A stretch of DNA of 64,000 nt from the NCBI RefSeq assembly GCF_003703835.1, contig NZ_RDQR01000007.1:1-64000 (forward strand), read 5' to 3'. The position numbers were made by a program, and so were the translations under genes. Within the stretch, counting starts at the first letter, position 1; every line of letters starts with the position of its first letter. This DNA comes from Auritidibacter ignavus. Its GTDB lineage: Bacteria > Actinomycetota > Actinomycetes > Actinomycetales > Micrococcaceae. Shown in pieces: positions 1 to 60,591 of this stretch. Under the pieces are notes generated by a model. The model was not told where the DNA came from and did not search any database. It saw only the letters and a list, made by a program, of their open reading frames with translations.

Positions 1-254
1 CCTCGATCCGAGGTGAGTCCCCGGCCCGCTCTAGCAATAAACAACTCAACAACGCCTTATTCCGATCCGCATGGATGGCCTCCTGCCACGACCCGGTATC
101 GAAAGCCCACTACAACAAGAAACGCGCAGAAGGCAAGAAACATAACGCCGCAGTGATCTGTCTGACACGCCACCGCCTCAACGTCATGTTCGCCTTGGTC
201 CGAGATAGCAACTTCTATCATGCTACCCCAAACAAAGTTCCCCAAGCAGCTTGA
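1..254 (+). pseudogene. IS110-family transposase, C-terminal part (cut by window edge)
   Basis: An open frame enters from the left edge (first full codon at 3) and stops at 252-254. Its translation has the C-terminal signature of IS110/IS116/IS902 transposases: a stretch like SSNKQLNNALFRSAWMA, then HDPVSKAHYNKKRAEGKKHN, then a V/I-C-L-T-R-R-like segment and a short tail. In this family the segment belongs to the C-terminal Transposase_20-type region. Whether the gene is complete cannot be told because its 5' part lies outside the window. It marks a mobile-element boundary beside the accessory operon that follows. Confidence 0.8.
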
Positions 255-429: not shown

Positions 430-1059
430 TTGACAATTCCCAAGAGTTCGCCGAAACGACTGGATCCGTCGACTGCCGCCGAGATGCTGTCCATTCCGCA
501 CGATGCTTCGCCGAGTGTCATCGATCAAGCTACCGATCGAACCGTCGAACTTATTTCCGCCGAGGGGCGAAAGTCTCAACAACATCATGTTCGTGATGCT
601 CGCCGAACTCTAACTGACCCCGAGTGGGCAGCCCGCGAACGAGTAACTCTCGGTTACGCCGGGTTCGCCGCGCTCCTGCTCACAGAGGTCGCCGCTTTTG
701 TATGCGCATTTCAGCTCATCACCGGCTGGGACGCTTTTTTATCTATAATCCCCGAGGACGTCACCCCACCGGAGAACATGGTTTTCGCACCACTGATTCT
801 CAACATCCTCTGGTTTGCAGCCATCATTTGGAGACCTTTGTCTCCACTAGGTGGCCGGAACCAAGCAAGAAAGCTATTCTGGAGCGCTCTTGGCCTAGCA
901 CTCGTGGCAGACTTGGTGGTTGCAACCTCCGTTGTCTTCTCAGACGTCGATACACCGTATGCGTTCTCACCATTTATCACCATCGTGATCGCGCTCGTGC
1001 TGTGCACCACACTTGACTTGCTCGCCAAGAACCGAGAAGAGAAAGGTGGATTCCCGTGA
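430..1059 (+). CDS. J-domain-like four-helix membrane protein, first gene of FtsK operon
   Basis: 209 residues, starting at TTG with an AAAGG ribosome binding site six bases upstream. Residues about 11-72 resemble a J domain in layout: a helix containing MLSIPHDASPSVIDQA, then HHVRDARRTLTDPEWAARER, which mimics the usual 'A-x-x-x-L-x-D-P-x-x-R' helix. The HPD tripeptide needed to stimulate Hsp70 is absent, so canonical co-chaperone activity is unlikely. Four hydrophobic segments follow (about 73-97, 117-134, 149-171, 178-198). The stop codon overlaps the GTG start of the FtsK-type ATPase (GTGA), so the two are probably translationally coupled. I infer a membrane anchor or assembly factor for the ATPase; no family is recognised with certainty. 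Confidence 0.7.
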   Translation: MTIPKSSPKRLDPSTAAEMLSIPHDASPSVIDQATDRTVELISAEGRKSQQHHVRDARRTLTDPEWAARERVTLGYAGFAALLLTEVAAFVCAFQLITGWDAFLSIIPEDVTPPENMVFAPLILNILWFAAIIWRPLSPLGGRNQARKLFWSALGLALVADLVVATSVVFSDVDTPYAFSPFITIVIALVLCTTLDLLAKNREEKGGFP

Positions 1060-3764
1060 ATATCACAACACGCATCGCTCATCTTCGACAATCCATCGGT
1101 TCACTGGCAGGACAAGCTCACGTTGCCCAAACAGATGCTGAAAAGCGAATCTCCGCAAATCGTGCTGAAGCCAGCGAACAGCTCCAGCACGCAATCCAAG
1201 ACGCCGAGGCCGTCTATCGATCAGGTGAAATTTCTGCCACAGCTTCCCGCGAGAACGCGGTCGCACGATTACTCAGCGAACTACGAAAAGCAGACCCATC
1301 GTCCCGTGTTCGAGACATTCCTGAGAATGGAGGAGTCCGTGCCCCAAATCCCCTTACTCGGGTTGGGACCATTCACGGACAACGGGGGGATGAGGCCCCG
1401 CTCAGCATTCCTTTGATCGATAGTTCAGGGGTCGTTATCAGTTCAACCCAGCAGACACGCGAACTCGCCCTACAGCTAGTACGGTCTGTGGTCGCCGATG
1501 TCGTCTCCCAAATACCCGCCCTACACCTGCGGCTGAGTCTCTTCGACCCCAATGTCAGTAGTGAACTCGCCGATTTCGGACCCCTCAAAGACGCACGACC
1601 GCAAACCGCACCGAAGCCTATGTCAGAAGTGCACGAACTACGCCAGCGTTTGGGCGAGATCTTTGCGCACGTACAAGAAACGGCGTCCATGCTCAAACAA
1701 GTACAGTCCCCATCGTTGTCTGAGTATTGGAAAACACTCGATACCCCTGAAGGCGAATACCACGTGCTGGTTTTGCTCGACTATCCAGCGGGACTCGATA
1801 AAGAAGGAGCACAGCGACTGGCCAAGTTCAGTCACGTTGCGAATAAGGGAGCGTTCCTCATTGTCTTGCGCACGCTGGACCACGATATGGACGAAGATCT
1901 CGTTACCGCCGATGAGAAGATCCTTTCCGGCTGTGAACACGTTATTGTCCATCCACATTCGATAGAGATTGCCGGATACCCTCCCTCTGACCGATTTCAG
2001 ACTCACATTTCCTACGACTCGACGGCTGTACGAGATGTCGTGAAGGACGCTGTTAGAACCGCCCGGGAGGCAAAAGGTCCGGTCATTCCGCTTCAGTCGG
2101 TGCTCCGGGATAGTGATGTCGAATTCTGGCAGTCGAGTGCTATAGACGGTCTCGAAACCGTCATTGGCAGATATCAAAAAGAGCCACTGATCGTGCGACT
2201 GCGTGGCGCATCGCCGCCGATCGCTAATATGCTGATCGGTGGTGCTGTCGGGCAGGGCAAGTCCAATCTCCTGCTTAATATCGTCTACGGATTGGCCTAC
2301 GCGTACCCGCCTGAGGAGCTCGAACTCTATCTGTTGGATTTCAAGGAAGGTCTTGAGTTCAAGAAGTTCGGTCCCGACAAGAATGGGGAAAACTGGCTAC
2401 CCCATGCCTCTCTCCTGGGCCTCCACACGCGTCAGGAAGATGGACTTATAGCGTTGCGTAACATCCAGCAACGGGTCGAGAAGCGAAAAAGACTCTTCCA
2501 AAACGCCGGAGCTGAAGACTACGAAACCTACCGCCGTATGGGCCATGAGATTCCCCGATTGGTCGTCGTTATCGACGAGTTCCAAGTACCGTTCTCGGGG
2601 AATAACGCTCAGTCCGAAGAAGCTGTCACACTCATCGAGCAGTTGTCCAGGCAAAGTCGTGCCACAGGCACACATCTTATTTTGGCCTCGCAAGCTCTGT
2701 CCGGAATCGAGGCACTTCACAGCAAACGGGATTCGGTTTTGGGACAGTTTCACGCGCGCCTATCGTTGAAGAATAACGCGAGCGAATCTGAGATGTTCTT
2801 CTCTCACGAAAACAGAGCTGCCGCGGACTTAACCTATCGTGGCGAAGTCATACTCAACGAGAATATCGGCGAAGATGTCGATAAAAATAAACGGGGAATA
2901 TGTGCCCTCGCCGACCGATCGTTCATAGCATCTCTTCAGACCCATATGTGGGAGCAGTCTGCTGGAGGAATACGCCGTTATCCGTTTAGGTTCACCCCTG
3001 ACAGTTACATGCCGTTCAGCGCACACGGCAAGTTGGACCTTGAAACCGACGATCCCGAAGATATCGTTCTCGACCTGGGCCGCCAGCTTAGCGTCGAGGA
3101 GCAGTCGGCGACCTACACGATGAACGATGATGTTAATCAAGCATTGGCTGTTGTTGGAGCCAGCGGTGGTGAAACCGCTGGCATCTTGGCGGCCGCGGTC
3201 CGATCTCTCTATCTCGCGCGCCCCCAGGAACAAATCTTCGTGGTCAACGTTGATTCTGCAACCCGCCCTGCCTGGCTCGACGGTCTCGAAGCCCGTGAGC
3301 CCGCACTCGCTCGTCAGCTCAGGTACATCGCACGGGAGCAGGCCAGCGAATTTGTTGCGGACTCACTACCAACGATGCGCGATGCATCCATCATCATGCT
3401 CGGTCTGCAGAAGATTCGTGGTCTTAGCGACCGCCTGAACTCAGATCCGGATAGTTTTACGCGACTCGATCCTTCTGACTTCCTCGCAGAGCAGATTGGC
3501 GACACACCAAGCACCAATCTCCGGTTTGTTCTTCGTTTCGGGAGCATTGAGTCGGTCAAGTCGGTTTTCGGGTATCGCGGTAATGTCATCGGCTGCTATG
3601 CGCTCGTCAACCAAGACAAAAACACGCTGCTCGACGTCACACAAGAATATAACTTCCCAATACCGACTGACTCACCACGTTTCGTGTTGCACTCTCGGGG
3701 CACCGGAGGATCGACGTTGACTGCCGTGCCCTATGAAGCCCCCTTGCTGAAGGAGACGAATTGA
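1056..3764 (+). CDS. FtsK/SpoIIIE-domain ATPase with N-terminal coiled coil
   Basis: 902 residues, GTG start. Residues 1-90 are a heptad-rich coiled coil and no membrane helix is visible. The FtsK/SpoIIIE motor core has Walker A GGAVGQGKSN near 393-402, LLDFKEGLEFKKFG just after, Walker B RLVVVIDEFQ near 500-509, then SRQSRATGTHLILASQ, a sensor-like segment. A second P-loop-like unit begins near 696 (VVGASGGETAG) but lacks the catalytic Lys, so it is probably a degenerate second ATPase domain, as in the C-terminal domains of type VII secretion EccC/EssC. Chromosome-translocase features (four N-terminal membrane helices, gamma winged helix) are missing, so this is not the FtsK of cell division. 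A DNA pump (HerA/DndH-like) is an alternative to a protein-export motor. Confidence 0.85.
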   Translation: MNITTRIAHLRQSIGSLAGQAHVAQTDAEKRISANRAEASEQLQHAIQDAEAVYRSGEISATASRENAVARLLSELRKADPSSRVRDIPENGGVRAPNPLTRVGTIHGQRGDEAPLSIPLIDSSGVVISSTQQTRELALQLVRSVVADVVSQIPALHLRLSLFDPNVSSELADFGPLKDARPQTAPKPMSEVHELRQRLGEIFAHVQETASMLKQVQSPSLSEYWKTLDTPEGEYHVLVLLDYPAGLDKEGAQRLAKFSHVANKGAFLIVLRTLDHDMDEDLVTADEKILSGCEHVIVHPHSIEIAGYPPSDRFQTHISYDSTAVRDVVKDAVRTAREAKGPVIPLQSVLRDSDVEFWQSSAIDGLETVIGRYQKEPLIVRLRGASPPIANMLIGGAVGQGKSNLLLNIVYGLAYAYPPEELELYLLDFKEGLEFKKFGPDKNGENWLPHASLLGLHTRQEDGLIALRNIQQRVEKRKRLFQNAGAEDYETYRRMGHEIPRLVVVIDEFQVPFSGNNAQSEEAVTLIEQLSRQSRATGTHLILASQALSGIEALHSKRDSVLGQFHARLSLKNNASESEMFFSHENRAAADLTYRGEVILNENIGEDVDKNKRGICALADRSFIASLQTHMWEQSAGGIRRYPFRFTPDSYMPFSAHGKLDLETDDPEDIVLDLGRQLSVEEQSATYTMNDDVNQALAVVGASGGETAGILAAAVRSLYLARPQEQIFVVNVDSATRPAWLDGLEAREPALARQLRYIAREQASEFVADSLPTMRDASIIMLGLQKIRGLSDRLNSDPDSFTRLDPSDFLAEQIGDTPSTNLRFVLRFGSIESVKSVFGYRGNVIGCYALVNQDKNTLLDVTQEYNFPIPTDSPRFVLHSRGTGGSTLTAVPYEAPLLKETN

Positions 3765-4261
3765 TGAACGGTGGATCACTGACGAACGCAGAAGCCGTCG
3801 CCCGTTACCGGACGCTGGTTGAGAATTTACTGAAGGAAGATTCATCCTTTGAACGCCAGATCTCCGGGCATGACAAGACACGAACGTCCTCGATCCACAC
3901 GGCGCAACACGAGCATGATTCCCAAATGCGGCGGCTCGAGGAAACCTCAGCCCGGGTGAAAAAGATGTGGCAGGACACTGTCGACTTCGCGGAAGGCACC
4001 GGATCCGAAGCGACCCCGCCACAAGACATTATTCGTTTCGAAGACAGTAATCGTATCGACAACGAGCGTGAGCGGTTAAGGCAGGAGTGGGAAATCGTCA
4101 GTCGAGATCACGCCCAGCTGGAGGCGATCCAACGTTTCGATGACGAAACCCGCAGTTCCCGCATCATAAACCGGGTTCTCTTGCTGATGGCAATTCTTAC
4201 TCCCACGATCGGAGCTGTTGTCGTTCTGATCAGAGCCGCACTCATGTACTTAGGAGGATAG
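3764..4261 (+). CDS. Coiled-coil protein with C-terminal membrane anchor
   Basis: 165 residues. The ATG at 3764 is preferred over a TTG at 3761 because AGGAG at 3751-3755 is well spaced from it; the start overlaps the ATPase stop (TGATG). Residues 1-130 are charged and helical with two Glu/Arg-rich coiled-coil stretches. Residues about 134-164 are a long hydrophobic segment (from IINRVLLLMA to ALMYLGG), long enough for one helix or a tight hairpin. No enzymatic motif is seen. The position between the ATPase and the small helical proteins suggests a structural membrane component; this is inference. Confidence 0.65.
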   Translation: MNGGSLTNAEAVARYRTLVENLLKEDSSFERQISGHDKTRTSSIHTAQHEHDSQMRRLEETSARVKKMWQDTVDFAEGTGSEATPPQDIIRFEDSNRIDNERERLRQEWEIVSRDHAQLEAIQRFDDETRSSRIINRVLLLMAILTPTIGAVVVLIRAALMYLGG

Positions 4262-4263
4262 TG

Positions 4264-4524
4264 ATGTCCGTTCTCGAAAATCTTCGTGGCCTGACTTTAG
4301 AGCTCTCCGCCGACACGCAACGTACCGGTGAGAGTCTCAGTGCCTATAGCCATGAATTCAACAAGCAACGAGTCCGCATTAACGATACGTTGCGTGGTAG
4401 CACTCAGCGGAAAGATCAGGAACTGATGGCCACCGTAGACGATGCGGAACGCCAAGTACGACAAGCGGTTCTTGCACTACAGAGAGCCAGCCGTGTCGCC
4501 CGCGATTATGCACATAATTTGTAA
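4264..4524 (+). CDS. Small all-helical protein (WXG100-sized), operon member
   Basis: 86 residues from the ATG at 4264, preceded by GGAGGA at 4253-4258, which also forms the end of the previous gene (stop 4259-4261). The protein has no Cys and looks like two amphipathic helices separated near the LRGST segment. Length and layout resemble ESAT-6/WXG100 proteins, but the Trp-x-Gly turn is absent, so family membership is not claimed. Spacing and ribosome binding sites show it is co-translated with its neighbours. Confidence 0.6.
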   Translation: MSVLENLRGLTLELSADTQRTGESLSAYSHEFNKQRVRINDTLRGSTQRKDQELMATVDDAERQVRQAVLALQRASRVARDYAHNL

Positions 4525-4535
4525 GGACCGTTTTA

Positions 4536-4877
4536 ATGTACGCACAAGAAATTTCTCGACTCAAATCCGAGATTTCTGAGCTTCAGAACCTTAGGCATCG
4601 GATTTCATCCGCCAGTGGCCGTTGCGAAAGACTCATTGCCCGTCTCGAACCGATCGCCGAGAGAGCGCATCTTGCCACTGCGGGGAGTATTTCAGAACAG
4701 CATCACCATATGGTCGGCGCAGCGACAGAAGCACACCGGCAACTACGTTCTACTCGGGAACGACTCAGCGATTCGGCACACGCCGTCCTGTCGCAGGTGC
4801 ACCGTCTCGAAGCTGAAATCTCGCGGCTTCGAAGATTGCAACAGGAGGCAGAACGCCACGAAACCTCAAGGAGATGA
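4536..4877 (+). CDS. Small coiled-coil protein, operon member
   Basis: 113 residues, ATG start 11 bases after the previous stop with TAAGGAC upstream. Heptad repeats run at the N-terminus (ISRLKSEISELQNLRHRIS) and C-terminus (VLSQVHRLEAEISRLRR), separated by a less regular middle with HHH near residue 56. This would form a helical hairpin. There is no signal peptide or membrane segment. Its size and place recall accessory helical proteins of type VII secretion loci, an analogy only. Confidence 0.6.
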   Translation: MYAQEISRLKSEISELQNLRHRISSASGRCERLIARLEPIAERAHLATAGSISEQHHHMVGAATEAHRQLRSTRERLSDSAHAVLSQVHRLEAEISRLRRLQQEAERHETSRR

Positions 4878-4879
4878 TG

Positions 4880-5113
4880 ATGACATCAGAAGTTGAACGT
4901 CTCATATTCGCTCTGGACGAGTTGGCTCGCGAAGCCGATTCCTTTGCACGGGAAAGCTGGGACTTGAGTCGAGACATCGGTGGTCTTTCGGGTTCTATGA
5001 CAGATATTTCAAGTACCATCTCGCTAGAAACTAGTCACCGCGCGGCAAGAAACGCCCATGAACAAGCTATCGCAATAGCCCGCGCGGCACGCTCCTATAC
5101 TGACCGGCTCTGA
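4880..5113 (+). CDS. Small helical protein, last gene of FtsK operon
   Basis: Three consecutive in-frame ATG codons occur at 4874, 4877 and 4880. The ribosome binding site AAGGAG ends at 4873, so 4880 (77 residues) is best spaced and 4877 is possible. The previous stop (4875-4877) lies inside this ATG run. The protein is Ala/Ser/Arg-rich and helical, with a Gly-containing break (SRDIGGLSGSM) in the middle, again a hairpin-sized product. No motif is recognised. Transcription probably ends in 5114-5218, facing the leftward nuclease-like gene. Confidence 0.55.
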   Translation: MTSEVERLIFALDELAREADSFARESWDLSRDIGGLSGSMTDISSTISLETSHRAARNAHEQAIAIARAARSYTDRL

Positions 5114-5218
5114 TACGAGGGATAACCTTTTGTCTGGATCACCCGGTGACGGAACGTGTCGCCGAAACTCTAAGATGAGTTCAGCAACGAGAACGCATCA
5201 CCTGTGATTACTGAGCTT

Positions 5219-6115
5219 CTACAGCTCCCGTTCCTTTGCCTCAAGTTGTTTCAGAGTCAGCCCATCAGCGTTTTTCCACAGATCGAGACCATTAAGGCTA
5301 CTGCCACCCACAAAGCATGCAGCAGTGGAAGGACTACCGAGTAGCAAATCCGATGTGAGGACATCATCCGAGCCGATATGGTCTCGGTACTTTTCTCGCA
5401 ATTTTCGAATACCGCGCCTTTCGCCACTGGTGGTGATGTCATCATCGGGCCTCAACCTCGCACCTGCCAGCACGATGAATCCATCGCTAGCTTGCCGTCC
5501 TCGAGCTTCAGTTCCTGCGTAACTGAAGTACAGCGTTGGTTCATCAGCCGGTTCCTGCTCGACTGGATTGACCACGTTGTGGTCCTTGGACTCGTCAACC
5601 GGGTCAAACATCTTATATCCCAGTGCTGCGACGACTAGTTTAACGTTGGCTATGAATTCTCTAAGCTCGGCTTCTTTCTCTTCGGTCACGGTACCCGGCG
5701 ACGGGTCATTGGCGTTGGTGACCCTGAATCGCCCAGCGTCCTTGGCCAAGGTAAAGAAGCTGTTTTCGAGAAAACTGATTTCGGTGGCCCCGAAGGAATC
5801 GTCCGAGGTCACAATGGCGATCGCGTGGGTCCAATAGTCCAAGCCGTCCTGACCAATATGCTCAAGAATCCGCCCGAGAACGCCCTTGCCGTTCTTTCGT
5901 TCTCTGGCTTGGCCGATATAGACCTTTGGGGTTTCGTCTTCGGTACCCACCAAGAAATACACGCCGGTTTGTTTCAGATCATCTCGAGATTTCGCCTCTT
6001 GAAGCATCGTGCGAGGGATGAGATGGGTGACTCCGGTCCAATTTCGTAGGGTCGCTTTCTTCCGGCCGTTGGCCGTGCCATCCATGAGGAAAAGTTGTAT
6101 TGTTCTGCCCACCAC
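5219..6115 (-). CDS. GIY-YIG nuclease-fold protein with C-terminal DUF4357
   Basis: 298 residues. A GIY-YIG core lies in about residues 48-130: the first strand GVYFLVGT, the second KVYIGQA, an Arg in GVLGRILEHIG, and the metal-binding Glu in EISFLENSFF. The C-terminal ~90 residues (from DGFIVLAGARLRPDDD through LTKLLLG-like TSDLLLGSPSTAACFVGG) match DUF4357, a domain often fused to GIY-YIG enzymes in accessory regions. It converges on the FtsK operon and sits next to holA. A role in DNA cleavage is inferred from the fold; whether it works with the operon is unknown. Confidence 0.8.
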   Translation of the reverse strand: MVGRTIQLFLMDGTANGRKKATLRNWTGVTHLIPRTMLQEAKSRDDLKQTGVYFLVGTEDETPKVYIGQARERKNGKGVLGRILEHIGQDGLDYWTHAIAIVTSDDSFGATEISFLENSFFTLAKDAGRFRVTNANDPSPGTVTEEKEAELREFIANVKLVVAALGYKMFDPVDESKDHNVVNPVEQEPADEPTLYFSYAGTEARGRQASDGFIVLAGARLRPDDDITTSGERRGIRKLREKYRDHIGSDDVLTSDLLLGSPSTAACFVGGSSLNGLDLWKNADGLTLKQLEAKEREL

Positions 6116-46963: not shown

Positions 46964-48034
46964 TTAAAAACCGCCATCAGCCATAATCGACGCTAACGCC
47001 ACACCATCAGACGGCATCACATGCGCATACGTACGCAACGTCTCCGTCGCATCCTTATGCCCAAGCCTCCGAGCAACCGCCACCACCGACGCGCCACGCG
47101 ACAACAAAAACGACGCATGAAAATGCCTCAACTGGTGCCACCCAGGCCCAGCCTCAGGCACCACCGACCGCATACGATGCCACGCCGACAACCGGGCCGA
47201 CTCAATCAACATGCGACCATCATCATGAAAAATCAGACCCTGATGATTCGCACACCCCACCAAACGCTCCATCACATCAACAACACGCCCACCATAATCA
47301 ACCGTGCGACGAGACGCCACAGTCTTCAACGGACGGTGCACTCTGGCACCCCTAGACGCCTCCAGTTGTCGATCAACCCTGATCGTTCTCGCCTTCACGT
47401 CCACCCTATCTACGGTGACACCAGCCCACTCAGACGGGCGTAAACCAGTGCCTGCAGCAACTGTCACCGCGTCAGCCCAAATAGTGTCACCAAAAAAGTC
47501 CCGCACCCGCTCGACCGTCTCAGTAGTCAAAAACTCCGCATCACCACGCTCACGCGCCCTAGGTAACCGCACCCTTGATGTTGGGGACCTACGGATCACC
47601 TCATCATCTAAAGCCGTATTGAAAATACTGGATAAATGTCGCAGGTACGTTTGCATGGTGGACGGCGCTAAAGTTTCCGCCCAGTCGAGCACCATCGCTT
47701 GAATGTCAGCACGGGTAATGTCATCCATGACGAGACCACCAATATGCGGAGACGACCGTTTAATCACATTCCCGAGCGTCTCCCTGGTGGTAGGAGCCTG
47801 GTGCACTTGCGCATCCCTATGGGCTTGAGCATAATCATCAAAGGTGACCCTGGTCCTAACCGGCCGGTGCGATTGCGCTACCAACCAGGCTTGCGCAGAA
47901 TCCTTCGTGTCATGCGACGTTTTCCGTTCACGCCCGGCCCCGTCAGTATAAACAGCCTGCCACCGTTTCCCCTTCCCATACCTGGCCGTCTTCGTCCGGT
48001 CTTTCCGGTGCCACAAATCCACGACCCGCGACAC
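46964..48034 (-). CDS. int: Tyrosine-type phage integrase
   Basis: 356 residues, GTG start. An N-terminal arm-binding region (RWQAVYTDGAGRERKTSHD), a core-binding SAM-like domain (DITRADIQAMVLDWAE...LAPSTMQTYLRHLSSIF) and the catalytic domain are all present. Catalytic residues: Arg in AGTGLRPSEWAG, HxxR in GWHQLRHFHASFLL, His in RLGHKDATET, Tyr in YAHVMP. It inserts and, with a directionality factor, removes the prophage. Its 3' end faces the host junction. Confidence 0.95.
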   Translation of the reverse strand: MSRVVDLWHRKDRTKTARYGKGKRWQAVYTDGAGRERKTSHDTKDSAQAWLVAQSHRPVRTRVTFDDYAQAHRDAQVHQAPTTRETLGNVIKRSSPHIGGLVMDDITRADIQAMVLDWAETLAPSTMQTYLRHLSSIFNTALDDEVIRRSPTSRVRLPRARERGDAEFLTTETVERVRDFFGDTIWADAVTVAAGTGLRPSEWAGVTVDRVDVKARTIRVDRQLEASRGARVHRPLKTVASRRTVDYGGRVVDVMERLVGCANHQGLIFHDDGRMLIESARLSAWHRMRSVVPEAGPGWHQLRHFHASFLLSRGASVVAVARRLGHKDATETLRTYAHVMPSDGVALASIMADGGF

Positions 48035-48396
48035 TAGTTATCACCGCCACGTAATAACCTGTTTTCCGCTTCCAACACGTGCACACGGTGGGACAACTCC
48101 AAGATCAGATCGTGCGTAGACGCCATGGACAGCGGAGAATCGGAGGCCAAAAGCGCGCTGACCGGCACGCATTCGTCACGGCGCACCACATCGGCCAACA
48201 CCCCCGGAGCGAACTGTAAGGCAGACTCCAGCGCGGATAGGGTGGAAGCGTGAGGCTTAGACCGAACCCCCTGCTCAATTTTTGCGACCGTCGCCTCAGA
48301 CACCCCCGACGCGTGCGAAAGATCAGATTGCGCCCACCCGAGCCGGGCACGACCATCACGGACAGCTTTAGCCAACGGCGACACCCTCTCCCCCAT
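48034..48396 (-). CDS. HTH (XRE-type) regulator in lysogeny block
   Basis: 120 residues from the ATG at 48396 with AGGTGG upstream; a GTG at 48381 is possible. HTH: KAVRDGRARLGWAQSDLSHASGV and SEATVAKIEQGVRSKP. The C-terminal end is a short leucine-rich coiled coil (LELSHRVHVLEAENRLLRG). It overlaps the peptidase gene before it and the integrase after it, so all are one leftward operon. It may tune the repressor or integrase. Confidence 0.75.
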   Translation of the reverse strand: MGERVSPLAKAVRDGRARLGWAQSDLSHASGVSEATVAKIEQGVRSKPHASTLSALESALQFAPGVLADVVRRDECVPVSALLASDSPLSMASTHDLILELSHRVHVLEAENRLLRGGDN

Positions 48397-48793
48397 CAGG
48401 CCACCACCTGGACGCATAAGAGGCCACCATCGACGGGGTGACCTCCAGGTCGTACGCCACACCCTGCACCGTACGATACACACGGCAAGCAGTCAGAAAC
48501 CGGCGCGGGCACACCAGGAGCCAATGTGCGAAATAGTCGGCTTCCCGCTCCGATACGGGTGTCGACGATGTGTGCCCATACACCGCATGACCAATCTCGT
48601 GAGCCAACACCGCCGTGCAACGAACCCCAGACAGACCAGGATGTAACCGTATGGTCCGTTCTGTGTGATCGTATTCTCCCAACGCGCCAGTGACCGTGTG
48701 GGCGCGACGTACAGTTACCCCAATACTGTCGGCAATCATCATTAAATCCATGCCCTCCAGCATCAGATGATGCGGGGACAGGATAGCGGTCAC
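48368..48793 (-). CDS. ImmA/IrrE-type metallopeptidase
   Basis: 141 residues. The zinc-protease motif AVLAHEIGHAVYGH and the downstream Glu in SEREADYFAHWLL define the ImmA/IrrE (DUF955) family. Such enzymes cleave a partner HTH repressor and so induce the mobile element. Its start overlaps the repressor stop by four bases, which fits that partnership. Confidence 0.88.
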   Translation of the reverse strand: MTAILSPHHLMLEGMDLMMIADSIGVTVRRAHTVTGALGEYDHTERTIRLHPGLSGVRCTAVLAHEIGHAVYGHTSSTPVSEREADYFAHWLLVCPRRFLTACRVYRTVQGVAYDLEVTPSMVASYASRWWPDGGEGVAVG

Positions 48794-49254
48794 GGATCTT
48801 GCAAATCAGCGTCCAAAGGTATGTCCGTGTCCCTCTCAGGGTGCGCTGCAAGTGTCCATTGCTCGCCGGTATCATCAGCTGGTTGTGTGGTGTCATGGTG
48901 TGTCCCCTTGTGGTTTGAGCCCGCCAACTCGATGACAAGCTGGCGGACTAGTTTCTGTTGTGTATCCGTGAGCCCGATAAGCGATTCCTCGAAGCTAGCC
49001 CGCTCTCTAACACCAGCAACATTCCGTTCACCATAGGCGGCCTCGTACAGGTCAGCCTTAGGTATCCCGAGGAGTACGGCGAAAGCGTCGAGAGTGCTCG
49101 CGGGAACATGTTTAGGGATTCGACCGCGCCTGTATGCGCTCACCGTCGAGGGCGATAATTTGAAACCCCGGGCGTTTGCAAGCCTGGACAGCTCGTTCAC
49201 GCCGATGTCTTTGTCGTCCATCACTTGCACGATGATTTTCGCTAAATCGGTCAC
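48790..49254 (-). CDS. Phage repressor, XRE-type HTH
   Basis: 154 residues from the GTG at 49254, preferred over the GTG at 49263 because AAGGTGGG lies just upstream. The HTH covers ELSRLANARGFKLSPSTVSAYRRGRIP near residues 22-50 in two halves. The C-terminus is acidic and helical, with no autoprotease (Ser/Lys) domain, so removal would depend on the adjacent ImmA-like peptidase. It is transcribed away from the Cro-like gene across 49264-49451. Confidence 0.8.
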   Translation of the reverse strand: MTDLAKIIVQVMDDKDIGVNELSRLANARGFKLSPSTVSAYRRGRIPKHVPASTLDAFAVLLGIPKADLYEAAYGERNVAGVRERASFEESLIGLTDTQQKLVRQLVIELAGSNHKGTHHDTTQPADDTGEQWTLAAHPERDTDIPLDADLQDP

Positions 49255-49298
49255 GGCACCCACCTTGACGGTTTTTCACAGACCACACAACTAGCACA

Positions 49299-49407
49299 CT
49301 TGCCACTTGTGGCAAGCAATTACAGGCCTGTAATTTGCGTATATCCCAGTATTTATAGGGTATCTGACACGCCTGGCATGTTCGGGACTTGCCACCCACT
49401 GGCAAGT
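49299..49407. promoter_or_regulatory. Divergent lysis-lysogeny switch with palindromic operators
   Basis: Two related palindromes, CTTGCCAC-TT-GTGGCAAG (49299-49316) and ACTTGCCA-CCCAC-TGGCAAGT (49387-49407), flank a third perfect palindrome ATTACAGGCCTGTAAT (49319-49334). For the rightward gene, TTGCCA (49389-49394) and TACTGT (49412-49417) form a promoter with 17-base spacing, and the operator covers the -35. The leftward repressor promoter likewise overlaps the first palindrome. Repressor and Cro-like protein probably compete here. Confidence 0.7.
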
Positions 49408-49451
49408 CGTGTACTGTTATCACTACACGCACACAGTAAGGAGGTGAACAC

Positions 49452-49703
49452 ATGAGAGAACGCACGATCATGGCGGTAAACGCCGAAAACCTCAGACAAT
49501 ACCTAGATGCCATGGGCATGAGTCAGCGAGAACTAGCACGCAGGGCCGGTATATCCCACACCCGGGTCCAGCAACTACTCAACGTGAAATCACCAAGCAC
49601 CGTACAACTAGGCACCGCCGTGAAAATAGAGCGAGCCCTTGGGGCGCCACCCAGAATTATTTTTATACCCAAGGTATGCACCATTACCACTACCGCCGCA
49701 TAG
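49452..49703 (+). CDS. Cro-like HTH protein
   Basis: 83 residues, with AAGGAGGTGA eight bases upstream of the ATG. The HTH is LDAMGMSQRELARRAGIS and HTRVQQLLNVKSPS. It is the first rightward gene, opposite the repressor, the usual place of Cro. The C-terminal segment PPRIIFIPKVCTI is beta-like and could dimerise. Confidence 0.8.
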   Translation: MRERTIMAVNAENLRQYLDAMGMSQRELARRAGISHTRVQQLLNVKSPSTVQLGTAVKIERALGAPPRIIFIPKVCTITTTAA

Positions 49704-49718
49704 CAGGTGAGGAAAACG

Positions 49719-49985
49719 ATGAAACCAGCCGTCCTCGAACAAAACCGCGCCACCTGGATAGACGGGGCCGTCGAATACCTCCTCCAGGAAGCACGACGCA
49801 CCGGCCAGGTCACCGCAGAAGACCTCCGAGCGAACTACACCAAACCTGACCACCCCAACTGGGTGGGGGCATGTTTCACCATCGCACGGGCCGAAGGGTT
49901 ACAGCGCACCGGGTATCGGCCGAGCAGGGACAAGACCAGGGCCGGAGGTGTCATCGGTGTCTGGGCGATTAACACCAAACACTGA
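49719..49985 (+). CDS. Small phage protein, winged-helix-like
   Basis: 88 residues from the ATG at 49719, with GTGAGGA upstream. Predicted helices (TWIDGAVEYLLQEARRTG, TAEDLRANYT) and a basic C-terminal region (GYRPSRDKTRAGGVIGVW) resemble a small winged-helix domain. No exact family. It is coupled to the Cro-like gene by 15 bases. Confidence 0.6.
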   Translation: MKPAVLEQNRATWIDGAVEYLLQEARRTGQVTAEDLRANYTKPDHPNWVGACFTIARAEGLQRTGYRPSRDKTRAGGVIGVWAINTKH

Positions 49986-50101
49986 CAAAAGGAGAACCGC
50001 CCCACAGGCGCGGGACGGTTCAACCATAAAAAGGAAAACACACCATAACCAAACATGGTGCACACCAACCAGTGTACCAGGAAAACACCACAGGAGCACC
50101 A

Positions 50102-50284
50102 ATGCCAACACAGTACCTGACGACCAGGCAGGTTGCAGAGCTCATTCACCGGAGTGAATACACGGTCCGCCAAATGGGGCGACGCCGAGAAATCAAAGGA
50201 ATCCAGCCAGGACCCCGCGGACGGTGGCTATTCACCCTCCGCGCCGTCGAAGCATGGGCAAAACGAAACGAGACCACACCATGA
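50102..50284 (+). CDS. Excisionase-like DNA-binding protein
   Basis: 60 residues from the ATG at 50102 with AGGAG upstream. Its MerR-like HTH (YLTTRQVAELIHRSEYTVRQM) and wing (KGIQPGPRGRWLFTLRAVEAW) match the helix_turn_helix excisionase family. It could be the recombination directionality factor for the integrase or an early regulator. Its stop overlaps the next start (ATGA). Confidence 0.75.
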   Translation: MPTQYLTTRQVAELIHRSEYTVRQMGRRREIKGIQPGPRGRWLFTLRAVEAWAKRNETTP

Positions 50285-50679
50285 AACCAGTGACGAAAAA
50301 AGTCTTGAAAACAATGGGCGTCCTGATCGCCAGCCCACTACTGGCCCTGGCAATCATGCACGCCATGGTGTCCCAAACCTCGTACGGGTGGGTGCCCGAG
50401 GCGGTGCTCTCTTACATCCTCCTCACTGGTGTCCTCGCGTCCCTACCCCTCGTCCTGCTTTGGGACACCAACGACTACGACCTACAAGCACAGAAAGGAA
50501 ACACACATGACCACCACCACGACAACACGCTGGGGTACCCCGGAAGCACGCCAAGTCCTCCCAGCAACAGCACCAGAAGAACTGTGGCTCGAAGCGCGCA
50601 CCCACGGTATCGGAGGATCAGAAATCCCCACCATCACCAGGGCACACAGCTACCAGACACCATACGAACTGTGGCTTGA
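50281..50679 (+). CDS. Small phage membrane protein with long overlap into exonuclease gene
   Basis: 132 residues from the ATG at 50281, coupled to the excisionase-like gene. Two membrane helices are clear (VLIASPLLALAIMHAM; AVLSYILLTGVLASLPLVLLW). After about residue 68 the frame runs 173 bases inside the YqaJ gene and encodes a basic, His-rich low-complexity tail. Either the overlap is real or the original stop was lost by a frameshift. The function is unknown. Confidence 0.5.
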   Translation: MKPVTKKVLKTMGVLIASPLLALAIMHAMVSQTSYGWVPEAVLSYILLTGVLASLPLVLLWDTNDYDLQAQKGNTHDHHHDNTLGYPGSTPSPPSNSTRRTVARSAHPRYRRIRNPHHHQGTQLPDTIRTVA

Positions 50680-51529
50680 AAAGACCGCCACCCAAACACC
50701 AGAACCCACCGTGAATAACTTGTTCTGGTTTGGGCACAAAGTCGAGCCCATCCTCGCCGAACGTTTCACCAGCGAAACCGGAATCCAAACCCGCAACACC
50801 GGCATGTGGCGGAACAAACACCACCCCTGGATGCTAGCCAACCCAGACCGGTACACCTCCGACAGTGGTGTCCTCGAAATCAAAACAACCACCCGGTACA
50901 CGGACAACGGCAAAACATATCTTGCCGGGAAAGTACCAGAGGCGCACCGGCAACAGCTGACCTGGTACATGATGGTCACCGGGCGCCACACCGGCCACAT
51001 TATCGCCCTCGTAGACCGCGAGCCGGTCATCCTCGGCGTGACCTACGACCACGACTACGCCGAACAGCTCGTGCAAGCCGGACGCGAGTTCTGGGAGCAC
51101 GTCGAAGCCAGGACACCACCACCAGTAGACCCCGACACCATCACCGGGACAGAAGCACTCCAACGCTGGCCAGAAGCAGACGCGGGATCACACGTGGAAG
51201 CAGCAGACAGTTTTGAAACAGAAATGCTCCTCACCTGGCTGGCTGAAGCGAAACAGGAAAAAGCCACCGCAGAATCCGCGATCCGAGAGTACGAATCCAA
51301 ACTCAAGGCCCAAATTGGTGACCACGAGTACCTGACCGTGAATGGGGATCCGGTTGCGCGCTGGCAGTCAGTGAAACCGAGGGCCAGTTTCGATAAAGAC
51401 CGTGCACTATCTGACCTTGCCGAATATGCCGGCGTCGATAGCACCGACGACGAATACCAGGACCTGGTGGACCGGTACACAAAACCCGGTAAACCGTCAC
51501 GACGATTCACCATCATCCAACACAGTTGA
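50507..51529 (+). CDS. YqaJ-type phage exonuclease
   Basis: 340 residues from the ATG at 50507 with AAAGGAAA upstream. The N-terminus has THGIGGSEIPTI. The restriction-like nuclease core shows FWFGHKVEPILAERF, MLANPDRYTSDSGVLEIKTTT with the Asp...Glu-x-Lys metal site, and QQLTWYMMVTGR. The C-terminal 100 residues are helical. It is the 5'-3' exonuclease partner of the RecT/Bet annealase encoded 900 bases downstream. Confidence 0.9.
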   Translation: MTTTTTTRWGTPEARQVLPATAPEELWLEARTHGIGGSEIPTITRAHSYQTPYELWLEKTATQTPEPTVNNLFWFGHKVEPILAERFTSETGIQTRNTGMWRNKHHPWMLANPDRYTSDSGVLEIKTTTRYTDNGKTYLAGKVPEAHRQQLTWYMMVTGRHTGHIIALVDREPVILGVTYDHDYAEQLVQAGREFWEHVEARTPPPVDPDTITGTEALQRWPEADAGSHVEAADSFETEMLLTWLAEAKQEKATAESAIREYESKLKAQIGDHEYLTVNGDPVARWQSVKPRASFDKDRALSDLAEYAGVDSTDDEYQDLVDRYTKPGKPSRRFTIIQHS

Positions 51530-51544
51530 TAGGAAAAACGCACC

Positions 51545-51925
51545 ATGAATGACATGGACAATGCACAAGCCCGCGACTACTACACCGAGCTAGCAAACTA
51601 CGCACTCGAAAAACTCGACAGCGTACTCGATGAATACCCACACATTATCGGATCATATGAGGCACGCATTCTCAGAGACCTCTACAATCCATGGAACCTA
51701 CGAATCATCGCCACATGGTCTCTAAAAGCTGAAGAAAGGCTCCGTGATCTGGATTATCAAAGAATCCAGTTCCCGGAATTTCAAGAAAAACCATGGTACC
51801 TCAAATACACACCAGCGTGGGACTTGTGTTGGACACGAGATGACATTGACACCGCAGTCGAATCACTCAAGAAACAGTGCGAACTCATGGAGGATGCCAT
51901 GGAACAAAAACTCACCAAACCATAA
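51545..51925 (+). CDS. Phage early protein, paralogue A (HIIGxY family)
   Basis: 126 residues, acidic and helical. It shares with the gene at 52057 the pattern E-K-L-x(5-6)-Y-x-HIIG-x-Y near residue 30 and a W-x(2-3)-T-R/N-D-x-(I/V)-D segment about 60 residues later. No known family. The two differ elsewhere, so the duplication is old. Confidence 0.6.
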   Translation: MNDMDNAQARDYYTELANYALEKLDSVLDEYPHIIGSYEARILRDLYNPWNLRIIATWSLKAEERLRDLDYQRIQFPEFQEKPWYLKYTPAWDLCWTRDDIDTAVESLKKQCELMEDAMEQKLTKP

Positions 51926-51941
51926 AAAGGAGAAACACATC

Positions 51942-52064
51942 ATGCGACTATCCGGGCCACCAGACATTTGGTTTTCAGACGACGAACCACCCTGCCACGA
52001 AAAACCAGAACCCGACCCCGACTACTGGCGAGACCTAGCCTACGAGGAACAACAAAATGACTGA
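51942..52064 (+). CDS. Very small acidic phage protein
   Basis: 40 residues, with AAGGAG upstream of the ATG at 51942. It is rich in Pro, Asp and Glu (PPDIWFSDDEPPCHEK, PDPDYWRDLAYEEQQ). It lies between the two paralogues and overlaps the start of the second by eight bases, which supports translation. No function is suggested. Confidence 0.5.
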   Translation: MRLSGPPDIWFSDDEPPCHEKPEPDPDYWRDLAYEEQQND

Positions 52065-52431
52065 CAACGCCAAAGAAGAATTCGAACAATTCATTCACAT
52101 GTACAACCTGTCGTGGTACGCACGCTACCACATAGAAAAACTCGTGGACAGATACGACCACATTATTGGAGATTACTTAATCGGAATCAACACAACACTG
52201 GGCCCAAAAGAGCACGCGGTCTTTGCCTTAAAGCTAGGAGCCTACCCAAACACGGAAAAGATCCCAGACGAAGTGCTCAACTCGTCCACCAGCAACACCC
52301 CGCCAGAACTCGCATCCAGGTGGGCATGGACAAACGACCACGTGGACGAATTCATCGAAGAATTATTCTCAAACGTCCTCAAACTAAACCAAAAACTCTA
52401 CGAACACCGCCACGGAGCCACCAATGACTGA
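52057..52431 (+). CDS. Phage early protein, paralogue B (HIIGxY family)
   Basis: 124 residues. It carries the same IEKLVDRYDHIIGDY block and a WAWTNDHVDEFIEEL block as its neighbour at 51545. The distance between the blocks is similar, and both proteins end in charged helices. The gene overlaps the annealase start by eight bases, so it is part of the same translational chain. Confidence 0.6.
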   Translation: MTDNAKEEFEQFIHMYNLSWYARYHIEKLVDRYDHIIGDYLIGINTTLGPKEHAVFALKLGAYPNTEKIPDEVLNSSTSNTPPELASRWAWTNDHVDEFIEELFSNVLKLNQKLYEHRHGATND

Positions 52432-53266
52432 GCTACAGGAAACCACCACCACTGACCTATCCATTCGACAAGACCAGCACGGCTTTAACGACATGCAAGT
52501 CGCCGCACTCAAACAACTGGGGGTGCAGGCCAACAACCCGGCAGACATCCAGGTTTTCTTCCACCAAGCCAAAGCGACCGGGCTCGACCCATTCAAGCGT
52601 GAAATCTACATGATTACCCGCAAGGGCCGGCCCACCATCCAAACCGGCATCGACGGTTTTTACAAGATCGCAGACCGGGTATCACGCGCCACCGGAGGCA
52701 CCTGGGGTATCACCGAAACCCTGTGGTGCGGACAGGACGGCCAATGGGTGGACGTGTGGTTACAGTCCGGGCCACCGGCTGCAGCCAAAGTCACTGTGGA
52801 ACGAAACGGGGCGAAATTCACGACGGTCGCCGTGTTCTCGGAATACCAGGCGGAGGGGCCACTGTGGCAGAAGATGCCGGCCCGGATGATCGCAAAATGC
52901 GCTGAAGCGCTGGCTATCCGTAAAGCGTTCCCGGACTCGTTGTCTGGGCTGTACACGTCAGAGGAAATGGAACAGGCCGATAACCCTGCATCACATCACA
53001 GTCACCGGCGTGTGGCACAACCGGCCCGTGGTGGTGGACAGTTAGCACCGCCAGATCAGTCTGAGGCGCCCGGCCAGGGCATTGATTGGGAGGATGCGTT
53101 ATCTACTGCCACATCACAGCCGGAGGTGGCCCACTTGGTGTCGCTGATGAAACAGGATGGCGTCCCGTCGGATGATCCGGCGATGCGGGTCGCCCGTGAT
53201 GTGTGGCGGAACCTGCCAGCACAGGCGCCAGAAGACACCGGCGAAATCGTCGAACAGGAGGGGTAG
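52424..53266 (+). CDS. RecT/Bet-family single-strand annealing protein
   Basis: 280 residues. The RecT/Bet hallmark FFHQAKATGLDPFKREIYMI is near residues 43-62, followed by GIDGFYKIADRV and a conserved end WQKMPARMIAKCAEALAIRKAFP. A variable Gln/Ala-rich C-terminus follows. It anneals ssDNA after YqaJ resection in phage recombination. Confidence 0.92.
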   Translation: MTELQETTTTDLSIRQDQHGFNDMQVAALKQLGVQANNPADIQVFFHQAKATGLDPFKREIYMITRKGRPTIQTGIDGFYKIADRVSRATGGTWGITETLWCGQDGQWVDVWLQSGPPAAAKVTVERNGAKFTTVAVFSEYQAEGPLWQKMPARMIAKCAEALAIRKAFPDSLSGLYTSEEMEQADNPASHHSHRRVAQPARGGGQLAPPDQSEAPGQGIDWEDALSTATSQPEVAHLVSLMKQDGVPSDDPAMRVARDVWRNLPAQAPEDTGEIVEQEG

Positions 53267-53269
53267 CAG

Positions 53270-53764
53270 ATGGCAGGAGAAACACAAGTAACGATCACTG
53301 GCCACACGACAGGTGACGCTGAACTGCGGTTCACCAAATCCGGCGACCCGGTCGCGAACTTCACGGTCGCACATAACACCCGGACCTTCGATAAGAACAC
53401 CCAGCAGTGGGTGGACGGGGACGCCACGTTCTATCGGGTGACGGTGTTCGGTAAACCGGCCGAACCGGTGGCTGAATCGGTGCGCAAGGGCGACAGGGTG
53501 ACAGTGACTGGTGCCTTGGAGTACCGCGAATACCAGACCAAACAGGGTGAACTCCGTTCGTCCCTGGGCATTAGAGCGTCGGATGTGGGCCTGAGCCTGT
53601 GGTTTAAGCCGGCGTACCGGTCTGGGGGCAACGGATGGTCACAACCAGCACCACCACCACAAGCACAACAACCACAACAGGGGCAATTCGCGCCACAGCA
53701 ACCACCACAGCAACAGCAGGGCCCGTGGGCTGGTAACACCCAGGCCGGGGAAGCACCATTCTAA
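53270..53764 (+). CDS. ssb: Single-stranded DNA-binding protein (phage)
   Basis: 164 residues. The OB fold begins QVTITGHTTGDAELRFTKSG and contains ATFYRVTVFGKPAEPVAESV and RVTVTGALEYREYQ. A Gln/Pro-rich linker ends with GEAPF, the acidic/Phe tail that binds partner proteins in SSB. It starts three bases after the annealase stop. Confidence 0.92.
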   Translation: MAGETQVTITGHTTGDAELRFTKSGDPVANFTVAHNTRTFDKNTQQWVDGDATFYRVTVFGKPAEPVAESVRKGDRVTVTGALEYREYQTKQGELRSSLGIRASDVGLSLWFKPAYRSGGNGWSQPAPPPQAQQPQQGQFAPQQPPQQQQGPWAGNTQAGEAPF

Positions 53765-53853
53765 AACATCGTCGACAGTCTGCACCGGAACCAAGCCGGG
53801 CACGGTGTGCAAGCCACCGAGCAGACACAACACACAACATACAGGAGACAACC

Positions 53854-54297
53854 ATGACATACGTGTACGGGGCAACAGGCAACAGCCCGGAGAGACACCA
53901 TATCCAACAGCTACAGCGCGAATTACAGCACACCAGACAGGTGGCCGAACAAAAACTCCGCGAATACGAGGCCAGAGCACGCCGGGCTGAAGCGAAAGCA
54001 AAAAAAGCCTACGACCTAGCAGGCAAAGAAAAAGCGGAACTACAAGAACAGGTGGACAGGTTGAAACAAAAGCACTTGACCAGGTATCGGCGTGATGCCC
54101 GGGAAATGCAAAAACTTGAAGAACAGAACCGAAAGCTATCGGACCAGGTGGACGCGCTGAAAACAAAACCCACCGGACCATACCAAGCAGACCTCATCGA
54201 ACTATTGCAGACGGAGAACAGGAAACTACATCAGCGCGTTCTCTCAGCACAGGCGCGGGCACACCGGACCACACACAGGCTACGAGACACAGCATAA
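53854..54297 (+). CDS. Phage coiled-coil protein
   Basis: 147 residues, ATG with AGGAGA upstream. It is almost entirely charged heptads (VAEQKLREYEARARRAEAK and following), with a second coiled coil after residue 80. There is no membrane segment. It probably forms a rod-like dimer. Its 5' part contains one copy of an 18-base repeat also found at 59971. Confidence 0.6.
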   Translation: MTYVYGATGNSPERHHIQQLQRELQHTRQVAEQKLREYEARARRAEAKAKKAYDLAGKEKAELQEQVDRLKQKHLTRYRRDAREMQKLEEQNRKLSDQVDALKTKPTGPYQADLIELLQTENRKLHQRVLSAQARAHRTTHRLRDTA

Positions 54298-54329
54298 ACA
54301 CACAACACACCTTAGGAGGGCTGAACTTT

Positions 54330-54554
54330 ATGGATTGGGCGACCATCGCCTTCGCGGTAGCCACCACATGCTTCGCAGGAGTAGCAATCATCCTTTGCCT
54401 GGTAGCAGACCAGCACGCACGGGCGATACGACACCTAGACCGTGACATCAGGCACCTGTACGCACGGTTGCACGCCATCGAGAGGGAGCAGACAACCACC
54501 ACAGGGTATGCGCCGTCCGAGACCGTGACCACGACCGAACAAGACTGCAACTAG
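54330..54554 (+). CDS. Small phage membrane protein
   Basis: 74 residues, with AGGAGGG upstream. One N-terminal membrane helix (WATIAFAVATTCFAGVAIILC) is followed by a helical cytoplasmic part (HARAIRHLDRDIRHLYARL) and a Thr-rich tail. No family recognised. Confidence 0.55.
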   Translation: MDWATIAFAVATTCFAGVAIILCLVADQHARAIRHLDRDIRHLYARLHAIEREQTTTTGYAPSETVTTTEQDCN

Positions 54555-54573
54555 ACAAGCGAGGAATCTCATT

Positions 54574-54720: not shown

Positions 54721-54722
54721 CA

Positions 54723-56081: not shown

Positions 56082-56150
56082 GACACGGGAAAAAACAACC
56101 CGACACACCCAAAATCACACTACACATCACAGCAATAAAGGAATAAAACG

Positions 56151-60563: not shown

Positions 60564-60591
60564 CAGCACTGTATGACAGGAGAAGGAAGTA

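What the first reader, a model, noticed from the sequence alone, without database searches (positions are those of the whole stretch)
430..5113. Undescribed-looking operon: J-domain-like membrane protein, FtsK-type ATPase, tail-anchored coiled coil and three small helical proteins
Six genes overlap or nearly touch (GTGA, TGATG, GTGATG, ATGATGATG junctions), so they form one unit. The motor has a true P-loop and Walker B but no membrane part of its own; the partners supply membrane helices and three 77-113-residue helical proteins the size of WXG100 proteins. Type VII secretion also pairs an FtsK/SpoIIIE-like ATPase with small helical hairpins and membrane anchors, but EccB/EccD/EssB-like parts are missing. 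It may be a compact export or DNA-translocation system, possibly defensive, since it lies in an accessory island.
Basis: partly seen in the sequence, partly recalled or inferred. Interest (0 to 1): 0.82.

Follow-up and report, generated by a model that had tools for sequence, protein, structure and literature searches.

The report
Compact type VII-like toxin-export operon
Six adjacent bacterial genes make a small machine, an ATP-driven motor with membrane partners and tiny hairpin proteins, that looks like a stripped-down cousin of the system mycobacteria use to secrete proteins, and in related bacteria the same hairpin is joined to toxins.

Summary
The six genes are real and form a unit. The motor (902 aa) is an EccC/EssC-type ATPase: an N-terminal helix, then three tandem domains, of which only the middle one has a P-loop (29 of 29 aligned homologues). 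Foldseek ranks the type VII ATPase EccC first. The small proteins are helical hairpins: D clearly, E homologous to D, F only by size and position. They do not match WXG100: a Gly-Ser/Thr turn replaces the WXG motif. The hairpin lies beside 28 of 29 well-flanked close motor relatives (Actinomycetota, Clostridia, one Saccharimonadota MAG). Many also encode J/TPR (25), Hsp70 (15) and GrpE (13) proteins. In seven relatives the hairpin starts a larger protein; four of six scanned carry Pfam toxin-type domains (ADP-ribosyltransferase twice, glutamine deamidase, calpain). I conclude that this is a compact, often chaperone-linked relative of type VII secretion that handles hairpin-tagged toxins. Export itself is inferred, no effector was found in this genome, and the genome holds a separate EccC/EccD-like locus. 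Related WXG100/FtsK operons are in print; this branch was not found in eight searches of one open-access library.

The parts
430..1059 (+). Gene A, 209 aa, soluble N-terminal ~75 aa then four predicted membrane helices; membrane partner
   Evidence: same position and same 4-helix topology in Schaalia L043 (207 aa), no blastp match between the two
1056..3764 (+). Gene B, 902 aa EccC/EssC-type FtsK-family ATPase: N-terminal helix 3-78, D1 ~100-340, D2 ~345-640 (P-loop 396-403), D3 ~650-895 (no P-loop); domain limits read from the model
3764..4261 (+). Gene C, 165 aa charged protein with one C-terminal membrane helix (138-156)
   Evidence: weak similarity to the Nesterenkonia counterpart (E 0.001 over 28 residues, in a 14-protein search)
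4264..4524 (+). Gene D, 86 aa two-helix hairpin (helices 3-43 and 49-85, RGST in the turn, aromatic-x3-L tail YAHNL)
4536..4877 (+). Gene E, 113 aa, paralogue of D
   Evidence: 4e-12, E took part in building that model; 3e-9 at Z=2000 with a model that E was not part of
4877..5113 (+). Gene F, 78 aa, probable third hairpin (tail YTDRL)
   Evidence: size, position and tail; profile match only 0.22, so homology to D not established
1..254 (+). End of an IS110-like transposase at the contig start (family name from recall); not part of the machine, marks the left edge
   Evidence: 98% copy at another contig start

Best explanation
The operon encodes a compact secretion machine that works like type VII secretion but is not a member of the named ESX/Ess families. 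Shown by computation: B is an EccC-type motor with one intact and two P-loop-less domains; D and E are Esx-sized and D is a predicted helical hairpin; in relatives the same hairpin family forms the N-terminus of proteins ending in toxin-type enzyme domains. Inferred: the hairpin, through its glycine turn and its conserved aromatic-x3-hydrophobic tail, docks on the motor; a hexamer of B is held at the membrane by C (tail-anchored) and A (four helices), which stand in for the missing ATPase membrane helices and EccB/EccD; ATP turnover threads hairpins and hairpin-tagged effectors out of the cell. In many relatives a dedicated J-domain/Hsp70/GrpE set would keep effectors unfolded and harmless until handed to the motor; the window's branch has lost or never had that set and may rely on the housekeeping DnaK. 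D, E and F would be the helper or structural hairpins; the effectors of this strain are unknown.
For: Fold of B: EccC cytoplasmic domain first in Foldseek, E 4e-30 over 940 columns (gaps included), FtsK 5e-15; VIA EccC Z 32.1, rmsd 4.8 over 487 residues, tied in Z with FtsK 31.2, rmsd 2.3 over 277; NCBIfam EccCa 1e-21, EccCb 2e-14 over residues 374-734. One P-loop, in D2, in 29 of 29. D: two helices, pLDDT 95; the Foldseek list is rich in EsxB/EsxA/EsxEF though all E are about 0.1 or more. Co-conservation: motor profile score >=450 and >=3 kb flanks, hairpin 28 of 29, J/TPR profile 25, Hsp70 15, GrpE 13. Next gene tail-anchored in 17 of 42 loci against 31 such genes among all 1,474 predicted genes. 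Hairpin N-terminal in seven proteins of 263-404 aa; Pfam above cut-off in four of six scanned: ADPrib_exo_Tox twice, Gln_amidase, Peptidase_C2. HSP70, DnaJ+TPR and GrpE named by Pfam in L078. Same six-position order in three lineages. Tree groups window B with Schaalia/Pauljensenia (96/88) inside a 32-row clade (99/99) apart from EccC and from the Caballeronia/Helicobacter WXG100-linked type.
Against: No export was observed and no channel component is recognisable; iterated searches with A and C found nothing but themselves in 88 loci. No hairpin-tagged effector was found in this genome, but that search also missed E, so a divergent tag could be missed too. Two-helix hairpins match many unrelated folds about as well. 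The hairpin profile was iterated on the loci it is counted in; the L052 and L032 effector N-termini match the earlier D model only weakly (0.004-0.007 in a six-sequence search). Two Bifidobacterium proteins carry the hairpin at the C-terminus of proteins that do not look like toxins (L053 scanned). Putative immunity genes have no Pfam immunity match (0 of 5). J, Hsp70 and GrpE genes were not found in the window's own branch, where only L042 and L043 have enough upstream sequence to tell. The 32-row clade also holds Micromonosporaceae motors (L068, L103, L106) without a hairpin hit, and the tree warns of long branches.
Confidence: 0.6

Rival explanations
1. An intracellular conflict system: the motor and the chaperones assemble or release hairpin-tagged toxins inside the cell on infection or stress (abortive defence); nothing crosses the membrane.
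For: No recognised channel; two related motor types sit with annotated TerD (L033) or VWA, CARF, phosphatase and kinase genes (L035); Hsp70/GrpE/DnaJ sets are described in another kind of conflict system (PMC7159879, passages); D matches ZorA weakly (7e-5 over 57 residues), which may be mere helix similarity; a Gram-negative relative (L035) would need an outer-membrane route.
Against: A membrane-helix protein follows the motor directly in at least 22 of 42 loci (17 tail-anchored, five multi-helix); the motor is EccC-like; the effector layout matches exported polymorphic toxins; no PADLOC model at 0.001 matches the hairpins of L078 and L043, the L078 tail-anchored partner or the two effectors scanned.
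Confidence: 0.22
2. A decaying remnant of a fuller J/Hsp70/GrpE-linked system: the left side was cut by an IS110-like element, effectors and chaperones are gone, and the six genes no longer act.
For: IS110-like end at the contig start; one Hsp70 match, read as the housekeeping DnaK, and no tagged effector found in this genome.
Against: All six frames are intact with tight junctions; Walker motifs are preserved; Schaalia/Pauljensenia and Rothia keep the same six-position order, in Schaalia between apparently intact chromosomal genes.
Confidence: 0.12
3. A DNA translocase or partition module of the FtsK/HerA kind.
For: PF01580 match 1e-18; D2 superposes well on FtsK (Z 31.2, tied with EccC).
Against: Three EccC-type domains, no FtsK gamma-domain among the Pfam hits, near-constant hairpin partner and toxin fusions in relatives.
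Confidence: 0.05

Closest known systems
Type VII secretion (ESX/EccC; Ess/EssC) with WXG100 and LXG proteins
   Same: Three-domain FtsK-family motor, Esx-sized helical hairpins encoded beside it, hairpin-tagged toxin-like proteins in relatives
   Different: Motor has an N-terminal helix instead of membrane helices and only one P-loop; no WXG motif or PF06013 match; no EccB/EccD/EssA/EssB match; J/Hsp70/GrpE partners in many relatives. The same genome has a separate locus with EccC (700 bits, above cut-off), an EccD-like protein (78 bits, below its cut-off of 95) and two ESAT-6/WXG100-like proteins (one above, one below cut-off)
WXG100/FtsK-like ATPase operons of TerY-P triads and type III-A CoCoNuT extensions (PMC11090510, passages read; Anantharaman 2012 known only as cited there)
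   Same: EssC homologue with N-terminal coiled coil, no membrane helices, only D2 active, two small WXG100-type proteins
   Different: Those have WXG100 proteins (one with, one without the WxG motif), VWA genes and a nuclease fusion; the motors of Caballeronia L035 and Helicobacter L161 form a separate branch; no J/Hsp70/GrpE or tail-anchored partner in the passages read
H. pylori 'WXG100 secretion system' cluster NCGC-5 (PMC4978471, passages read)
   Same: FtsK-type motor, WXG100 protein, DnaK homologue and a nuclease in one co-occurring cluster
   Different: Gram-negative; WXG100 rather than the glycine-turn hairpin; in the passages seen it is a table entry plus a remark that WxG and FtsK genes are a minimal type VII set
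FHA-FtsK (EssC-like) protein beside tad pilus genes (L039-L041; FHA and tad labels by eye)
   Same: FtsK-family motor related to EccC, seen in three inspected genomes of the same bacterial family, the own genome included
   Different: The three rows group together (99/93) and with a Streptomyces EccCa (100/99); the hairpin profile has no match in those three loci

Membership tests
Type VII secretion system (ESX/Ess) | EccC/EssC-type motor with three tandem FtsK-like domains | tested here: met
   AF2 model and EccC first by Foldseek; VIA Z tied with FtsK but over 487 against 277 residues
Type VII secretion system (ESX/Ess) | Passes the curated EccC/EssC equivalog cut-off | tested here: not met
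   77 of 509 bits (EccCa), 53 of 347 (EccCb), 58 of 778 (EssC); positive control: this genome's own EccC 700 and 622 bits
Type VII secretion system (ESX/Ess) | Motor carries its own transmembrane helices | tested here: not met
   no hydrophobic segment in B, N-terminal helix 3-78 instead
Type VII secretion system (ESX/Ess) | EccB/EccD/YukD or EssA/EssB membrane partners in the locus | tested here: not met
   A and C match none in Pfam or NCBIfam; YukD/EccD-like protein exists elsewhere in the genome; the EccB search was uninformative because its controls were silent
WXG100 (PF06013) | Pfam WXG100 match and WXG/WxD motif in the turn | tested here: not met
   no PF06013 match for D, E, F; in the turn Gly 60 of 79, then Ser/Thr 70 of 79, no aromatic residue in those columns
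WXG100 (PF06013) | Two-helix hairpin fold | tested here: inconclusive
   EsxEF Z 10.6 (rmsd 1.7, 76 aligned) and EsxA 10.3 (2.6, 81) lead, but unrelated hairpins score 9.9-10.3
WXG100/FtsK operon of TerY-P/CoCoNuT type | N-terminal helical/coiled-coil segment, three domains, only the middle one with P-loop | tested here: met
WXG100/FtsK operon of TerY-P/CoCoNuT type | WXG100 protein with VWA/kinase/phosphatase neighbours | tested here: not met
   no such match among the seven proteins of 430-6115; different motor clade
J-domain protein (gene A) | DnaJ domain match | tested here: inconclusive
   no Pfam hit; 1.9 bits against the relatives' J profile
FtsK/SpoIIIE DNA translocase | FtsK gamma DNA-reading domain | tested here: not met
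   only FtsK_SpoIIIE above its cut-off in the Pfam scan
Known anti-phage system (PADLOC) | Several components matching one system | tested here: not met
   B matches SspH/mad8 over the ATPase domain; D matches ZorA at 7e-5 and E matches LmuB at 0.004; no two genes match one system (relatives)
Polymorphic toxin secretion | Constant N-terminal trafficking domain fused to variable toxin domains | tested here: met
   in relatives only: seven fusions, four of six with Pfam toxin-type domains above cut-off; none found in this genome

The most novel reading that the evidence does not exclude
A distinct class of secretion system shared by Actinomycetota, Clostridia and Saccharimonadota, in which a dedicated J-domain/Hsp70/GrpE relay hands hairpin-tagged toxins to a soluble EccC-type motor tethered to the membrane by separate small proteins: type VII secretion with the chaperone and the anchor as separate, exchangeable parts.
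Probability: 0.4. Interest if true: 0.82.

Novelty: new variant of a known kind. Interest (0 to 1): 0.68.

Why it matters
If right, EccC-type motors can secrete without EccB/EccD-like membrane proteins, which would make the minimal requirements of type VII secretion testable in a six-gene unit. The linked Hsp70 relay would be a dedicated unfolding step for secreted toxins, and the loci point to toxins in Leifsonia, Cryobacterium, clostridia and, by one MAG, Saccharimonadota, ultra-small parasitic bacteria whose means of attacking hosts are poorly known (last point from recall).

Tried and rejected
Plain protein query in genome contigs: none of 15 candidates confirmed; the alignment query worked. 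IMG/VR: 80 pattern matches, none confirmed; annotated phages: five partial matches to the motor domain, so no sign of a phage-borne system. Of 294 other same-family genomes, 258 had matches; 255 of these had only weaker matches (E 1.4e-23 at best). Two of those loci and one of the own genome were inspected: FHA-FtsK proteins beside tad genes (by eye), not this system. One search did not list the genome's real EccC, so it is no census of EccC. Sequence homologues of window A, C and F by iterated search over 88 loci: none beyond themselves. Immunity genes: no Pfam immunity match in five candidates. Foldseek for D gave no match at E<=0.001. Toxin-like readings of the L032 and L033 C-termini and of L096 are recall only; Pfam gave none for L032 and L033, L096 was not scanned. 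Low-scoring relatives (40 loci: Planctomycetota, Glycomyces, Micromonospora and others, some with short flanks) lack the hairpin in 39 of 40; one Planctomycete gene scanned beside the motor is a WXG100 protein. Duplicates L036-L038 and the divergent L033-L035 were dropped from the counts; L042/L043 are near-identical and not independent. The J count of 25 is by a J/TPR profile; a loose pattern for a J-like start finds 22 of the 29. Enrichment near defence genes was not tested. The EccB search in the own genome is uninformative.
Full report
What is there. Six same-strand genes run from 430 to 5113 with overlaps or gaps of at most 11 bases. The window begins at a contig start with the end of an IS110-like transposase (name recalled), of which a 98% copy begins another contig. 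To the right lie a gene for a DUF4357 protein that PADLOC lists as candidate PDC-S14, and then genes that I read, from recall, as holA and comEC.

The motor. B matches FtsK_SpoIIIE (1e-18) and, far below their cut-offs, EccCa, EccCb and EssC. AlphaFold2 with 29 sequences gave pLDDT 84 and pTM 0.75: a helix 3-78, then three alpha/beta domains. Foldseek puts the EccC cytoplasmic domain first (4e-30 over 940 columns, TM about 0.44, so the placing of domains differs) and FtsK at 5e-15. VIA gives EccC Z 32.1 (rmsd 4.8, 487 residues) and FtsK Z 31.2 (rmsd 2.3, 277 residues): tied in Z, but EccC covers two domains. Each of the 29 sequences has exactly one G-x4-GK[S/T] P-loop, in D2. This is the make-up described for CoCoNuT-linked EssC homologues (PMC11090510, passages).

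The hairpins. An iterated profile seeded with D finds D-like proteins beside the motor across the loci, and E is one of them; E also matches a second profile that it was not part of (3e-9). F matches that one only at 0.22, though its Schaalia counterpart matches at 5e-14, having been drawn into the model. D is predicted as two helices, 3-43 and 49-85, at pLDDT 95. In 79 non-redundant hairpins the turn holds Gly in 60 and then Ser or Thr in 70, and an aromatic residue sits near the end in 55 of 78. WXG100 proteins top the VIA list, but unrelated hairpins tie, and the profile's match to a WXG100 protein of this genome is marginal (0.0084 at Z=2000). So: shape like Esx proteins, kinship not shown.

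Neighbours across genomes. Among 42 loci with motor profile score of 450 or more (window and one plasmid included), 37 have a hairpin gene. Of the 29 with at least 3 kb on both sides (window not among them), 28 have it, 25 match a J/TPR profile, 15 Hsp70 and 13 GrpE; the miss, L077, has a weak hairpin match (6e-5). Of 40 lower-scoring loci, one has it. In one search, 78 of 89 hairpin matches lay within 4.5 kb of the motor; of the other 11, four are one Nesterenkonia locus held twice, about 8 kb away, and seven are in loci where the script had not mapped the motor. Pfam names HSP70 (6e-126), DnaJ+TPR and GrpE in L078. Seventeen of 42 motors are followed by a protein of 110-260 aa with a single C-terminal membrane helix; only 31 such proteins, these included, exist among 1,474 predicted genes. 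My gene caller is simple and misses some small genes, E among them.

Toxin fusions. Seven proteins have the hairpin at residues 1 to about 85 and a further domain (L078, L087, L057, L096, L054, L052, L032). Six were scanned: two ADP-ribosyltransferases, one glutamine deamidase and one calpain-type protease pass the Pfam cut-off; L057 matches a C39-like peptidase below it, L032 matches nothing. Six of the seven seeded the second hairpin profile, so their match to it is by construction; with the earlier D profile L078, L057 and L087 match strongly (they had helped to build it), L054 at 1e-5, L052 and L032 at 0.004-0.007 in a six-sequence search.

The window's own branch. Rothia terrae and Schaalia/Pauljensenia show the same order: membrane protein, motor, tail-anchored protein, three small proteins. 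D is 38-39% identical between them and the window; A, C and F are alike mainly in size and topology, A and its Schaalia counterpart having four helices at nearly the same places. No Hsp70, J or GrpE gene was found near L042 or L043; in the window, Rothia and Nesterenkonia loci the contig ends too soon to tell. In this genome the hairpin profile finds D alone, missing E, and the Hsp70 query finds one gene, a 659-residue frame 45% identical, which I take to be the housekeeping DnaK. A separate locus on contig C33 holds a full-length EccC (700 bits), an EccD-like protein below its cut-off, and two ESAT-6/WXG100-like proteins, so this organism seems to have a canonical-type system as well.

Spread. 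Three of 294 other sampled genomes of the same family have a long motor relative. The hairpin profile matches 28 of 394 sampled genomes of the class at 1e-5, four of them (own included) at 1e-9 or better; the other 24 are one family, f25, that the loci suggest is Frankiaceae (one f25 contig has the length of the Protofrankia contig L104), with a single hairpin and a multi-helix partner in the one locus read clearly (L159). The motor tree does not follow species: the Saccharimonadota row (a MAG) sits among Actinomycetota, and the window's nearest rows are Actinomycetaceae. That fits horizontal transfer. The clade also holds Micromonosporaceae motors without a hairpin hit, and long branches make some placings unsure.

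Mechanism. Steps shown: motor type, hairpins, co-conservation, toxin fusions in relatives. Steps inferred: docking through the turn and tail, membrane tethering by A and C, export, chaperone hand-over, antibacterial purpose. The main rival keeps the toxins inside the cell.

Literature. Eight searches of a library that lacks most subscription papers and preprints listed no description of this branch; of most papers I saw only titles and abstract openings. I read passages of PMC11090510, PMC4978471, PMC7159879 and PMC1779556. Anantharaman 2012 is not held and could contain related loci.

Noticed in passing
window 5219-6115 (-): DUF4357 protein matching PADLOC candidate defence family PDC-S14 (4e-93), next to the operon.
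   Followed up: no
L039-L041 (G000:C1, G123:C1, G045:C33): FHA-domain FtsK/EssC-like protein encoded beside tad pilus genes (labels by eye); 259 of 295 sampled genomes of the family have some match to the motor query, nearly all weak.
   Followed up: partly
G000:C33:1-9000 (L168): Separate canonical-type locus: EccC 1417 aa, EccD-like, two ESAT-6/WXG100-like proteins, a ParA-like protein (last by eye).
   Followed up: partly
G000:C10:19580-19870 (L160): WXG100 protein close to a groEL-like gene (by eye), with no motor gene noticed in the 18 kb viewed.
   Followed up: no
L157-L159: Frankia-like genomes keep one hairpin gene; in L159 it lies with the motor and a multi-helix protein beside a trehalose-synthesis-like gene (by eye), without toxins: perhaps a housekeeping use of the same machine.
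   Followed up: partly
L161 (Helicobacter plasmid): FtsK-type motor with a WXG100-like protein (below cut-off), an HNH endonuclease and an SMI1/KNR4 protein (as annotated), a toxin-immunity-like set in a Gram-negative.
   Followed up: partly
L033 8495-12463: Related motor with a TerD-like N-terminal region (by eye) beside annotated TerD genes on a Rhodococcus plasmid.
   Followed up: no
window about 46964-63498: Prophage-like stretch: integrase-like (46964-48034), RecT-like and terminase-like (62188-63498) genes, by eye.
   Followed up: no
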